Assembly (NCBI GenBank): GCA_027315115.1
Contig: DAHUYQ010000046.1
Span: 1 to 64,000, forward strand
DNA length: 64,000 nucleotides
Direction of reading: 5' to 3'
Source: Solirubrobacterales bacterium
Lineage (GTDB): Bacteria; Actinomycetota; Thermoleophilia; Solirubrobacterales; Solirubrobacteraceae
Shown here: positions 17,463 through 26,660 of the stretch, one piece after another
How the letters are laid out: every line of letters starts with the position of its first letter
Position numbering within the stretch: position 1 is the first letter of the stretch
Translations under genes and position numbers: made by a program
The notes under the pieces: model-generated
Seen by the model: the letters and a program-made list of their open reading frames with translations, nothing else
Database searches by the model: none
Told to the model about the DNA's origin: nothing

Positions 17463-18479
17463 TCAGGCGTACGCGACCACGGCGAGCATCACGCTGAAGA
17501 CGAGGTAGGCGCCCACGATCAGCGCGCCGCTGCCACGGCGCAGGCCACGGCTGCGATAGGCACTGGCCAGCGCGAACCCGGTCAGGCCCACGTACCAGGC
17601 CGCGACGAGCGTCGCCTGCCCGGAGGCGGCGCCGATGCTCGCGACGGTGGCGGGCAGCAGCAGACCGGCCACGACGTTCAGCGCGTTGCTGTTCATCGCG
17701 GTGCTGAGGGTCGCCGAGCCGCGGCCGCGCCGGGCCAGGTATACGGCCGCCACCGCGTTTGGGAGGCTCGTGACCCCGGCCAGCACCAGACCGCCGACGA
17801 CGATCTCCGGCATCGCCACGCGCTCCCCGAGCGTGGAGGCAGTCCGCTCCATCGCGACGCTGACAGCAACCACGACCGCCACGGCAAGGGCGGCCAGCAG
17901 CGCGTCGCGGGCGCCACCGCGCCGCGGGTGGATCGCGGGCAGCAGCTCGGCCTCCTCCTCGACGACGGCCTCGGCGAGCCAGCTCGCCCAGGCGTCTGGC
18001 AGGCCCGCCCGCCTCAGGCGATCGTGGGGCACCCCCAGGACCACGAGGTAGGGCAGCAGCAGCACGAGCGACACGCCGAGCCCGACGGGCGCAGCAAACG
18101 CCCCGGCGACCACCAGCAGGCAGATGGCGCCGATCCCGAGCGCCACGATGCTCTCGACGGCGATCACGCGCCGGTGCAGCGCGATCCGACCGGCGATCAC
18201 CGCGGAGAGACCCAGCAACGCGGCAAGGTTGAACACGTTGGAGCCGATCACAACGCCCGCGCCGATCTTCGTGCGACCGGCAAGCATCGCGCTGACCGCC
18301 GAGGTGATCTCCGGCGCGTCGGCGGCAAGCGCCGCGAGCATGCCGAGCAGCGCCTCGGTCAGGCCGAGCCGCGCGCCGACACGCTCGAGCCTTGTCACGA
18401 GCAGCCAGCTCGTCGCCAGGCTCACAGCCGCGGCGGCTACGAAGAGAACCGCCAGAAGCGCGCTCGGCATCTCTTTCAC
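17463..18479 (-). CDS. CaCA-family cation (Na+/Ca2+ or K+-dependent) exchanger
   Basis: This 338-residue membrane protein has two homologous halves, each of about five hydrophobic segments. The alpha-repeat signatures are AALAADAPEITSAVSAMLAG with GAGVVIGSNVFNLAALLGLS (first half) and VLAGVTSLPNAVAAVYLA with STAMNSNALNVVAGLLLP (second half). Such exchangers move Ca2+ or other cations against Na+ or H+. The second repeat has TSLPN where many family members have a TS(L/I)PE-type acidic residue, so the ion preference may differ. Its start overlaps the preceding KdpD-N stop by 4 bases (ATGA). It is therefore translated as the last gene of the kdp operon. Confidence 0.88.
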   Translation of the reverse strand: MKEMPSALLAVLFVAAAAVSLATSWLLVTRLERVGARLGLTEALLGMLAALAADAPEITSAVSAMLAGRTKIGAGVVIGSNVFNLAALLGLSAVIAGRIALHRRVIAVESIVALGIGAICLLVVAGAFAAPVGLGVSLVLLLPYLVVLGVPHDRLRRAGLPDAWASWLAEAVVEEEAELLPAIHPRRGGARDALLAALAVAVVVAVSVAMERTASTLGERVAMPEIVVGGLVLAGVTSLPNAVAAVYLARRGRGSATLSTAMNSNALNVVAGLLLPATVASIGAASGQATLVAAWYVGLTGFALASAYRSRGLRRGSGALIVGAYLVFSVMLAVVAYA

Positions 18480-19684
18480 TGGCTGGGCTGCTCGTCGTCC
18501 ACGGCCGCGCCGTGCTCGGCCTCTCCCTCCGCAGGACCTCGCCGCAGCGTCGGGTCGGTCACGATCCGGATGTCCACGCCCGGAAGCTCGCGCAGCAGCC
18601 GGTCCAGCAGCGACTCTGACATCCGCCTCAGGCCCCGCTTCTGGCCTGGCGCGCTCATCAGCACGTAGGTGGTGCCGAGGCTCTGAGCGGTCTCGATCGC
18701 CGCCGCGGCGGCGTCCTCGCGCTCCTCGAGTATCAGGCGCGCGCCGAGCACGGAGACCAGCCGCCGCAGCGCCTCGAGCTGCTCACGATCCTCCTTGCTC
18801 GGCGCCCTTCCCGGCGGTCGCACGACGAGGATGTCGAGCTTGGCGCCCAGGCGCTCCGCCGAGCGCCACGCGCGGCGCACGATCCGCTGCGCCTCGGGGG
18901 AGAGCGCCACCAGCGCGAGCAGCCGCTCGGTGATCGCCTGGGGCGCCGCTGGCGCCTGCACGCTCGGCTGCCCCTCTTCGTCGCGACGCATCACCGAGCC
19001 GGCGGGCAGCACCAGCCGGCGCACCTCCACGTCCTCAGCCACCTGCCGCAGCGCCGTCTCGCGCAGCGCGGCGAGGCTCTCGACCTTGAAGAAGTTGTTC
19101 AGCGCGGCTGACACCCGCTCCCGCGGGTAGACCTTCCCGGCCCGCAGCCGCTCGATCAGCGCCTCCGGCGTCAGGTCCACGAGCACGATCTCGTCCGCAG
19201 TGGAGAGCACTTCGTCGGGGATCGTCTCGCGCACGCGCGTGCCCGTCAGGCGCATCACCTGGTCGTTGAGGCTCTCCAGGTGCTGGACGTTGACGGTGGA
19301 GAAGACGTCGATGCCGGCGTCGAGCACGTCCTGCACGTCTTCGCAGCGCTTCTCGTGCTCGGTGCCCGGCGCGTTGGTGTGGGCGAGCTCGTCTATCAGG
19401 CAGACCTCGGGGCCGCGGGCCAAAACGGCCGGCAGGTCCATCTCCTGCAGCGGCGTGCCGCGGTAGGCCACGCTGCGAGTGGGGATCTGCTCCAGACCCT
19501 CCGCCTGCGCCTCGGTCTCCTCCCGGCCGTGTGGCTCCAGGTAGCCGATCACGACGTCCTTGCCGTTCTGTGACTCGCTGCGGCCCTCCTGCAGCATCCG
19601 GTAGGTCTTGCCGACCCCGGCGGCCATGCCGATGAAGACCTTCAGGTGACCACGCTGCTGCTCTTGGGGTGGGTCCGCCGGCAC
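18476..19684 (-). CDS. kdpD: KdpD N-terminal sensor half (KdpD + USP domains) as a separate protein
   Basis: This 402-residue soluble protein corresponds to the cytoplasmic N-terminal half of KdpD. The KdpD domain has the ATP-binding Walker A GMAAGVGKT (19-27) and DELAHTNAPG. It is followed by VFSTVNVQHLESLND and VYPRERVSAALNNFFK, and then by a universal-stress-protein domain (LLALVALSPEAQRIVRRAW onward). There are no transmembrane segments and no kinase domain. The missing half is encoded at 25134-26660, at the other end of the operon. N-terminal-only KdpD proteins are known from cyanobacteria. It starts with GTG 20 bases after kdpB stops. It probably binds ATP, nucleotide or ions and modulates the partner kinase. 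Confidence 0.9.
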   Translation of the reverse strand: MPADPPQEQQRGHLKVFIGMAAGVGKTYRMLQEGRSESQNGKDVVIGYLEPHGREETEAQAEGLEQIPTRSVAYRGTPLQEMDLPAVLARGPEVCLIDELAHTNAPGTEHEKRCEDVQDVLDAGIDVFSTVNVQHLESLNDQVMRLTGTRVRETIPDEVLSTADEIVLVDLTPEALIERLRAGKVYPRERVSAALNNFFKVESLAALRETALRQVAEDVEVRRLVLPAGSVMRRDEEGQPSVQAPAAPQAITERLLALVALSPEAQRIVRRAWRSAERLGAKLDILVVRPPGRAPSKEDREQLEALRRLVSVLGARLILEEREDAAAAAIETAQSLGTTYVLMSAPGQKRGLRRMSESLLDRLLRELPGVDIRIVTDPTLRRGPAEGEAEHGAAVDDEQPSQ

Positions 19685-25134: not shown

Positions 25135-26660
25135 CAGCGTGTCGGCCGGCCGACCGGCACCGGCTCCTCTGCCGCCGCGGCGCCGCGCGCCGGCTCCTCC
25201 AGCGGCAGCTCGAAGACGAAGCTCGTGCCCTGGCCGGGCAGCGACTCGGCGTGCAGCCTGCCCCCATTTGCCTCGGTGAAGCCCCGTGCGATCGCCAACC
25301 CCAGCCCGGAGCCGCGATGGCCACCCTGCGGCGTGCCGGCACGGTAGAAGGGCTCGAACACCCGCTCGAGCTGAGCGGGTGGAATGCCGGGACCGCGGTC
25401 CACGACTCGCACGATCAGGCGATCGCCGCTGCCCTGCTCACCATCCAGCGAAAGGCGCTCACCGCTGGTTGCTCTGGCCTCGGAGCGAGCCCCCGCGATC
25501 GTCCGCACCGCTCGCGCGCGCACGGAGACCGGATGCCCACCGCAATGGCGTCTGGCGTTCTCCAGCACGTTCACGAACGCTCGCTCGAGCTGCACCGGAT
25601 CGGCGTTGACCATCGGCAGCTCGCGATCGATGGTGAGCGCGAACTCGTCGGGCTTTGCCGCGATCTCCTGCAGCGCGCGCTGGATCAGCTCGTCGACGGC
25701 GCTCCACTGCGCCTGTGGCTCGGCCACGCCCGCTTCCAGGCGCGAGAGGTCGAGGAGGTTGTCGACCAGACGCGAGAGGCGCCCGGCCTCCTGCTGGATG
25801 ATGCCCGCCATCTCCAGGCGCTCCTGCTCTGTCAGCGTCGGCGAGGTGATCGCCTCGCTGGCCGTCGAGATCGCGGTCAGCGGCGAGCGCAGGTCGTGGG
25901 ACACCGCGCGCAGCAGCGCGGTCTTGACCACGTCGGCGCGGCGCAGCGCGGCGTTCTCGACCACGTCGGTGAGCAGCGCTTCGCGCTCCAGCGCGGCGCT
26001 CATCAGCGCCTCCAGCGCCGGGACCACCCGCTCCTGCAGGCGCCGCAGCTTCTCCTCGCCGGCATCCGCGGGCGCCAGCAGCGTGCCCAGCCGGCGGCCC
26101 CCGTCGCGCAGCGGAAAGGCGAGGTGCCGGTCGTCGCCCTCGACGGTTGCGATCTCTATCTTCACCGCGCTGAGACCGAGCACCTGGGCAAGCCGTGCCG
26201 CCGCGGCCGGCAGGTCCACGGCCAGCGGGTTGCCGCGCAGCAGCAGCCGCGCCATCTCGGCGGCGAGATCGGCCTCCCGCCTGCGCTCGATCGCCTCTCG
26301 CGCACGCGCGCGGGTGACCTCAGCGACCGAGCTGACCAGCCAGGCGACGATCAGGAAGGTGATCAGCGCGACCCAGTTGTCGGCGTTGCGGATCGTAAGC
26401 TGCCCCGTGGGAGGCAGGTGGAAGAAGTTGAACGCCAGGGCGCTCAGCACGCCGGCGCCGGCCCCCATCCAGCCGCCCCAGCTTGCCGAGACGACCAGCA
26501 CGGCGGGCAGGTAGACGACGCTCAGCGAGACGACCGGCGCGATCTGCTTCAGCGGATAGACGATCAGCGTGCACAGCGCGACCGCGAGAAGCGCGACGAG
26601 CGCACCCACGCGCCGCGGCTGGGGCTCGGAGCCGAGCAGATAGCCGAAGGGGCTGGCCAC
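25134..26660 (-). CDS. kdpD: KdpD C-terminal half: DUF4118 membrane domain and histidine kinase
   Basis: This 508-residue membrane kinase has four closely spaced hydrophobic segments (DUF4118, about residues 15-115, including NFFHLPPTGQLTIRNADNW). It continues with a GAF-like region, a HisKA domain with H255 in AVSHDLRSPLTAI, and a HATPase domain (N box ENARRH, G1 DRGPGIPP, G2 GSGLGLAIARGF). It lacks the KdpD and USP domains, which are encoded separately at 18476-19684. Together the two halves total 910 residues, close to one-piece KdpD (894 in E. coli). It has a GTG start and overlaps kdpE by one base. Confidence 0.92.
   Translation of the reverse strand: MASPFGYLLGSEPQPRRVGALVALLAVALCTLIVYPLKQIAPVVSLSVVYLPAVLVVSASWGGWMGAGAGVLSALAFNFFHLPPTGQLTIRNADNWVALITFLIVAWLVSSVAEVTRARAREAIERRREADLAAEMARLLLRGNPLAVDLPAAAARLAQVLGLSAVKIEIATVEGDDRHLAFPLRDGGRRLGTLLAPADAGEEKLRRLQERVVPALEALMSAALEREALLTDVVENAALRRADVVKTALLRAVSHDLRSPLTAISTASEAITSPTLTEQERLEMAGIIQQEAGRLSRLVDNLLDLSRLEAGVAEPQAQWSAVDELIQRALQEIAAKPDEFALTIDRELPMVNADPVQLERAFVNVLENARRHCGGHPVSVRARAVRTIAGARSEARATSGERLSLDGEQGSGDRLIVRVVDRGPGIPPAQLERVFEPFYRAGTPQGGHRGSGLGLAIARGFTEANGGRLHAESLPGQGTSFVFELPLEEPARGAAAAEEPVPVGRPTR

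What the first reader, a model, noticed from the sequence alone, without database searches (positions are those of the whole stretch)
18476..26660. KdpD is split into two genes that bracket the kdp operon
The N-terminal ATP-binding/USP half (402 aa) and the C-terminal membrane kinase half (508 aa) are separate genes at opposite ends of one co-directional cluster. Together they equal a full KdpD. The break falls exactly between the USP domain and the first membrane helix. N-terminal-only KdpD is known in cyanobacteria, but here both halves are retained. The sensor input could therefore be exchanged, titrated or used by other partners.
Basis: partly seen in the sequence, partly recalled or inferred. 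Interest (0 to 1): 0.72.

Follow-up and report, generated by a model that had tools for sequence, protein, structure and literature searches.

The report
Split KdpD, an ancient order-wide arrangement
The bacterial potassium sensor KdpD is made here as two separate proteins, probably one that brakes the potassium pump and one that switches on its genes; the layout is shared across this bacterial order and is of a kind already described in other bacteria.

Summary
KdpD-N (18476-19684, minus, 402 aa) and KdpD-C (25134-26660, minus, 508 aa) are separate intact genes at the ends of a co-directional kdp cluster; no other KdpD domain was found in the genome.

It is neither artefact nor local. Of 151 genomes of the order (Solirubrobacterales, inferred), 56 carry a strong KdpD domain; 55 are split, one has a fused, apparently acquired KdpD. 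The commonest gene order is kdpD-C, kdpE, A, C, B, kdpD-N.

The kind is known: both halves on separate chains are published for Deinococcus radiodurans (PMC5716572) and surveyed across phyla in PMC11018627, where the N part is a serine kinase inhibiting KdpB.

Best reading: each kinase sits beside its substrate, the histidine kinase half by kdpE, the serine kinase half after kdpB and behind a candidate KdpE box, so the brake is made with the pump. Catalytic residues are kept. Distance correlations hint that the halves still communicate; exchange or titration is only partly supported.

In passing: an unnamed conserved 26-aa membrane peptide before KdpF, and pump order A-C-B.

The parts
25134..26660 (-). 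kdpD-C: membrane part (DUF4118), short GAF-like stretch, HisKA with H255, HATPase; 508 aa
24460..25134 (-). kdpE response regulator, 224 aa; overlaps kdpD-C by 1 nt
24402..24450 (-). candidate KdpE box: two direct-repeat pairs (11 bp within a pair, 32 bp between pairs) in the 81-nt gap between kdpE and the pump segment
24298..24378 (-). unnamed 26-aa membrane peptide (pep1); overlaps the kdpF start by 4 nt
24212..24301 (-). kdpF, 29 aa; overlaps the kdpA start by 4 nt
22443..24215 (-). kdpA, 590 aa
21788..22441 (-). kdpC, 217 aa, placed before kdpB
19704..21791 (-). kdpB, 695 aa; E165/S166 match E. coli E161/S162, S162 being the serine that E. coli KdpD phosphorylates
18476..19684 (-). kdpD-N: Walker A/B KdpD domain plus Usp domain, 402 aa; starts 19 nt after kdpB

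Best explanation
A two-protein KdpD in which the two kinase functions are placed next to their substrates. KdpD-C with KdpE forms the K+-responsive two-component system at the head of the cluster. KdpE~P is proposed to act at the conserved repeat box between kdpE and the pump genes, driving pep1-kdpF-A-C-B-kdpD-N. KdpD-N, made in step with the pump, is proposed to phosphorylate KdpB S166 when K+ is restored and so shut the pump; c-di-AMP at its Usp domain is a possible signal. It probably still docks on KdpD-C. Shown: genes, layout, conservation, residues, N-pump co-occurrence, repeat box, predicted folds. Inferred: kinase activity and its target here, KdpE binding, the signal, and N-C contact.
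For: Order split N halves (59 with the window): Walker A GKT aligned in 58, Walker B DE in 59, R190 equivalent in 59. KdpB reads TGES in 82 of 92 fetched loci; eight rows are partial (120-457 residues) without the motif, one reads TGET, one TGEF. In E. coli these N residues are needed for KdpB S162 phosphorylation and the N domain alone does it (PMC11018627 section 7). N follows kdpB on the same strand in 50 of 59 N hits, within 200 nt of the BLAST ends in 43. All 56 strong-N genomes have KdpA; 0 of 93 KdpA-less genomes have a strong N. Repeat box: at least one pair in 47 of 52 order regions before kdpA (dinucleotide shuffles: mean 1.35, maximum 4), both pairs in 22 of 52 (shuffles 0), and the double occurs once in the 64-kb window. 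N-C distance correlation given the other kdp proteins 0.26-0.50, N-KdpB 0.19-0.37, N-KdpE about 0. Diadenylate cyclase in 141 of 151 order genomes.
Against: No biochemistry. E. coli W39 of the adenine pair is Y here (Y in 42 of 59, F 7, V 7), although Y is also usual in the fused KdpDs examined (14 of 18). The published c-di-AMP motif is absent from 59 of 59 order split N halves, but also from 18 of 18 fused and 29 of 29 others, so it decides nothing; the own genome has no cyclase match, perhaps through incompleteness. In the distance test, pairs without known direct contact reach 0.22, so N-KdpB overlaps them at its low end; the test also misses a known pair (KdpB-KdpC 0.05-0.24), and its control in 13 fused loci misses KdpA-KdpB (-0.01) and links N to KdpE (0.37). 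In four loci N lies opposite or next to kdpE instead of after kdpB. G042 has pump and C half without N. The repeat box was found by eye in the loci on which it was then counted.
Confidence: 0.6

Rival explanations
1. Reassembled KdpD: the halves form one sensor complex in trans, and the main job of N is to set the kinase/phosphatase balance of KdpD-C or to hold KdpE on DNA; KdpB phosphorylation is secondary.
For: N-C distance correlation 0.26-0.50 in split genomes, against 0.51 inside fused chains. In E. coli the N domain interacts with the C region, the free N domain (1-395) gives constitutive kdpFABC expression, and truncated KdpDs respond to K+ limitation but cannot repress at higher K+ (PMC2714519, passages).
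Against: N stays with the pump, not with the kinase, in 50 of 59 N hits, and occurs only with the pump while strong DUF4118 matches also occur in eight KdpA-less genomes. N-KdpE correlation is near 0 in split genomes.
Confidence: 0.3
2. Independent modules: KdpD-N is a c-di-AMP-controlled pump inhibitor and KdpD-C a separate K+ sensor; no contact remains.
For: The short D. geothermalis KdpD works without a kinase core and is stimulated by c-di-AMP (PMC11018627). A C half with kdpE occurs without KdpA or a strong N in G105 and G127.
Against: The halves co-diverge beyond what the other kdp proteins explain. The published c-di-AMP motif is absent, which is weak evidence because it is absent in all sequences examined.
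Confidence: 0.25
3. Recent fission, assembly error or frameshift of a one-piece KdpD.
For: The window is from a draft genome (65 contigs).
Against: 55 of the 56 strong-KdpD genomes of the order sample are split. The order's split N rows lie in one supported group of 70 rows and the C rows in one of 46 (SH-aLRT 98 and 99). The halves lie 5.4 kb apart with intact kdp genes between.
Confidence: 0.01

Closest known systems
Deinococcus radiodurans kdp locus (PMC5716572, passages read)
   Same: kdpD-N in the pump operon; separate C-half sensor kinase and response regulator
   Different: There the kinase and regulator form a separate operon in the opposite orientation, upstream of kdpBAC-kdpD-N; here all genes run one way, regulator genes first, pump order A-C-B
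Separate serine-kinase and histidine-kinase KdpD chains surveyed in PMC11018627 (sections 7, 8 and part 1 of 9 read)
   Same: KdpD/Usp chain plus TM/GAF/histidine-kinase chain; in the examples it names, the serine-kinase chain lies downstream of the pump
   Different: The text names Acidobacteriota and Chloroflexota as the commonest holders; its supplementary phylum tables were not read, so Actinomycetota cases may be listed there
E. coli full-length KdpD
   Same: Same domains in the same order; Walker A/B and R190 kept in N, phospho-acceptor His in C
   Different: Two chains; spacing from a conserved membrane-region proline to the histidine is 171 residues here against 207; W39 is Y
NCBIfam NF038185 KdpD-like non-kinase potassium sensor
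   Same: Best NCBIfam model for KdpD-N, matched over residues 8-377
   Different: 357.5 bits, below the curated cut-off of 550

Membership tests
Split KdpD (separate serine-kinase and histidine-kinase chains, PMC11018627) | KdpD domain with Walker A/B and Usp on a chain without a kinase core | tested here: met
Split KdpD (separate serine-kinase and histidine-kinase chains, PMC11018627) | Separate chain with membrane helices, GAF region and DHp/CA | tested here: met
   the GAF part is short and no Pfam GAF match was returned
Split KdpD (separate serine-kinase and histidine-kinase chains, PMC11018627) | N chain phosphorylates KdpB at the TGES serine | not testable with these tools
   residues present; activity needs an assay
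Short KdpD controlled by c-di-AMP (D. geothermalis type) | c-di-AMP stimulates the N chain through its Usp domain | tested here: inconclusive
   Fold match to 7ji4; motif [AGC]xSxSxxN[YF] absent in 59 of 59; cyclase in 141 of 151 order genomes, none found in the own genome
KdpDE two-component system | Phospho-acceptor His and ATPase-domain residues conserved, OmpR-type regulator adjacent | tested here: met
   the KdpD and KdpE NCBIfam models match below their cut-offs
KdpFABC | kdpF, kdpA, kdpB, kdpC all present | tested here: met
   order A-C-B instead of A-B-C; KdpF passes the Pfam cut-off (22.5 against 21.2) but not that of NCBIfam (21.7 against 26.85)

The most novel reading that the evidence does not exclude
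A bipartite KdpD that still works as one signalling unit in trans: KdpD-N, produced only when the pump is induced, acts both on KdpB (stopping the pump) and on KdpD-C (resetting transcription), a delayed double brake. The same pump operon would also carry an undescribed second small membrane subunit, pep1, next to KdpF.
Probability: 0.3. Interest if true: 0.62.

Novelty: new member of a known kind. Interest (0 to 1): 0.42.

Why it matters
PMC11018627 asks whether the serine-kinase and histidine-kinase functions of KdpD are controlled separately or by shared input. A lineage that keeps them as two genes across an order allows each to be deleted, expressed or titrated alone. If the halves still bind, it also shows how a fused sensor could arise from, or fall into, parts.

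Tried and rejected
Artefact or recent fission: rejected by order-wide conservation. Intact KdpD elsewhere in the genome: none found. c-di-AMP control from sequence: the motif was absent in all 106 N sequences looked at, so uninformative. A first thought that the lineage lacks diadenylate cyclase was withdrawn. Split-specific shortening of the GAF region: fused KdpDs in the alignment are nearly as short (median 180 of 14, against 171 of 36 order split rows). Sigma-70-type promoter scan: none in 17000-27000, 0.5 expected. The named genome-contig scan with KdpD-N gave only four loci. Polarity (fusion or fission): the trees are drawn with a midpoint root, so left open.

Rows set aside or mislabelled: L110 and L102 are cut by contig ends; the 'mid' label of L111 is my error (one search shows it is split); L123 looks like a fused gene with a frameshift and its N pieces fell under the length limit of the N tree; N limits of L074, L088, L097 and L099 were set by hand inside one ORF; weak PF02702 matches (about 19-29 bits) were not counted and not examined, probably other ATPases. 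The C tree also holds DUF4118 kinases that are not kdp genes (for example one in L086).

Paper searches: apart from PMC11018627, PMC5716572, PMC8214093 and PMC2714519, which I opened, they were read as listings. One search (KdpD with Solirubrobacter) held no paper. In one search, 301 papers held two of the terms and none of the 20 shown held KdpD. One search was swamped by the sugar acid KDPG. So absence from print of this layout or of pep1 is only lightly tested.
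Full report
What is there. On the minus strand the window holds, in transcription order, kdpD-C (26660-25134), kdpE (25134-24460), a 26-aa ORF pep1 (24378-24298), kdpF (24301-24212), kdpA (24215-22443), kdpC (22441-21788), kdpB (21791-19704), kdpD-N (19684-18476) and a sodium/calcium exchanger gene (18479-17463). From pep1 onward neighbours overlap by 4 nt or lie 1-19 nt apart; kdpD-C and kdpE overlap by 1 nt; the only larger space, 81 nt, lies between kdpE and pep1. The two halves have the KdpD domains in the expected division. 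The own genome holds no other PF02702 or DUF4118 match, at 90.65% completeness.

How old the split is. In 151 genomes of the order (own included), 56 have a strong KdpD domain. I fetched loci of the 55 others. They give 59 N sequences: 58 end within 32 residues of the N-half profile match and one is part of an 873-aa fused protein, G121. With the window, 55 of 56 genomes are split. G121 also has the standard A-B-C-D-E gene order and falls with fused KdpDs of other actinobacteria in both the N and the C tree, so it looks acquired.

Gene order. Of 58 loci mapped, 30 show exactly kdpD-C, kdpE, A, C, B, kdpD-N. Nine show A, C, B, kdpD-N without the regulator genes in the fetched stretch; in G022 and G139 a kdpD-C with kdpE was found elsewhere in the genome. 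Nine show rearrangements or an extra N copy (L036, L043, L045, L053, L067, L077, L081, L087, L092); L037 holds a second, divergent kdp operon; L038 is G121; L071 shows no pump genes; L064 differs only by a doubled kdpC match; the other six are partial. All three pump genes are visible in 53 loci, in the order A-C-B in 52, G121 being the exception. The full layout also occurs in two other families of the class (L109, L115, L112), and a third has kdpD-C, kdpE, A, B, C, kdpD-N, with C halves only 28-29% identical to the window's (L104, L106, L108). The other loci of class and phylum include fused A-B-C-D-E operons and N halves behind A-B-C. The order name is inferred: G036 contig C168 and a contig titled Patulibacter sp. 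have the same length (72,553) and identical N rows, and NCBI places Patulibacter in Solirubrobacterales.

What the N half does. PMC11018627 (section 7; section 8; section 9 part 1) shows that the E. coli N domain is an atypical serine kinase that phosphorylates KdpB S162 and inhibits the pump, and that a short D. geothermalis KdpD phosphorylates E. coli KdpB with c-di-AMP as stimulus. Here the needed residues are kept: Walker A GKT in 58 of 59 order split rows (one row lacks the stretch), DE in 59, the R190 equivalent in 59; W39 is mostly Y, as in 14 of 18 fused KdpDs examined. KdpB reads TGES in 82 of 92 loci; eight rows are partial, one reads TGET and one TGEF. N lies downstream of kdpB on the same strand in 50 of 59 N hits; in three it is opposite kdpE, in one directly after kdpE, in two it is a second copy, in two the locus ends, and one is the fused gene after kdpC. 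N occurs only with the pump: all 56 N genomes have KdpA, while G042 and a contig-end fragment in G047 show KdpA without a strong N. Strong DUF4118 matches occur in eight KdpA-less genomes; in two of these, G105 and G127, kdpE lies beside it; the other six were not looked at.

Control of the pump segment. In the 81-nt gap lie two pairs of C(T/G)(T/G)NA(C/T) repeats, 11 bp apart within a pair and 32 bp between pairs, at 24450-24434 and 24418-24402. At least one pair is found in 47 of 52 order regions before kdpA (shuffles: mean 1.35, maximum 4) and both in 22 of 52 (shuffles: 0); in the 64-kb window the double occurs only here. The motif was seen by eye in these loci before counting, so the counts describe it rather than test it independently. 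Pairs also precede the pump where the kinase and regulator lie elsewhere or on the other strand (L043, L053, L061). This fits an OmpR-type KdpE site that drives pump plus N; binding is not shown.

Do the halves still talk? With the other kdp proteins as covariates, pairwise distances of N correlate with those of C at 0.26-0.50 and with KdpB at 0.19-0.37, and not with KdpE (-0.02 to 0.05) or KdpA (-0.20 to -0.11), over four locus sets of 25-37 loci and two scales (a first run with 30). Known partners score 0.55-0.67 (KdpD-C with KdpE), 0.48-0.66 (KdpA-KdpB) and 0.33-0.54 (KdpA-KdpC), but KdpB-KdpC only 0.05-0.24, so the test misses real contacts. Pairs without known direct contact range from -0.22 to 0.22, which overlaps N-KdpB at its low end. 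The N-C value falls as divergent loci are removed. Within fused chains N-C is 0.51 over 13 loci; there KdpA-KdpB is -0.01 and N-KdpE 0.37, so the control is noisy. I read this as a lead that N touches KdpD-C and perhaps KdpB. In E. coli the N and C regions interact and the free N domain alters expression (PMC2714519, passages).

Signal. Diadenylate cyclase is in 141 of 151 order genomes, including the eight other same-genus ones; none was found in the own genome. The S. aureus-type c-di-AMP motif (PMC8214093, passages) is absent in all 106 N sequences tested: 59 order split, 18 fused, 29 other. The Usp fold is nonetheless closest to the c-di-AMP-bound S. aureus domain among the Usp structures listed. 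The input to the N half stays open.

Novelty. The kind is known: D. radiodurans (PMC5716572, passages) and the survey in PMC11018627, which names Acidobacteriota and Chloroflexota for separate chains and D. radiodurans, Anabaena and Alicyclobacillus for kdp expression under a separate two-component system. What I did not find described, in the limited searches, is the bracket layout with A-C-B in this actinobacterial order, the candidate box, and pep1.

Noticed in passing
24298-24378 (minus): Unnamed 26-aa membrane peptide before kdpF, at E<1e-3 in 47 of 52 order regions before kdpA (0 of 415 shuffled); in 54 sequences D2 in 53, F13 in 53, acidic 24 in 53, R25 in 48; differences are most frequent at codon position 3 (1676, 1107, 2147); no Pfam or NCBIfam family above its cut-off. 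The profile was seeded from 13 of these sequences.
   Followed up: partly
19704-24215 (minus): Pump genes in order A-C-B in 52 of 53 order loci with all three visible, so kdpB comes last, before kdpD-N.
   Followed up: yes
24402-24450 (minus): Conserved double direct-repeat box between kdpE and the pump, the only such double in the window.
   Followed up: partly
17463-18479 (minus): Sodium/calcium exchanger gene overlapping kdpD-N by 4 nt. BLAST with it found 34-35% matches in two same-genus kdp clusters at other places: between kdpE and kdpA in L041 and before kdpD-C in L056.
   Followed up: partly
L045:1923-3158 and 7282-8418: Same-genus genome G060 has two intact N halves and one C half at the locus; the window's N groups with the distal copy. 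In G143 the kdpB-adjacent copy carries an in-frame stop.
   Followed up: partly
L137: G042 (99% complete): kdpD-C, kdpE, A, C, B with no N half found; a natural operon without the presumed brake, to compare.
   Followed up: partly
L094, L095: kdpD-C with kdpE but no pump genes or N half beside them in two same-genus genomes without KdpA.
   Followed up: no
L100, L113: Two genomes of family f9 of the class have KdpDs of about 650 aa: N part followed by about 270 residues that match the C-half profile only weakly.
   Followed up: no
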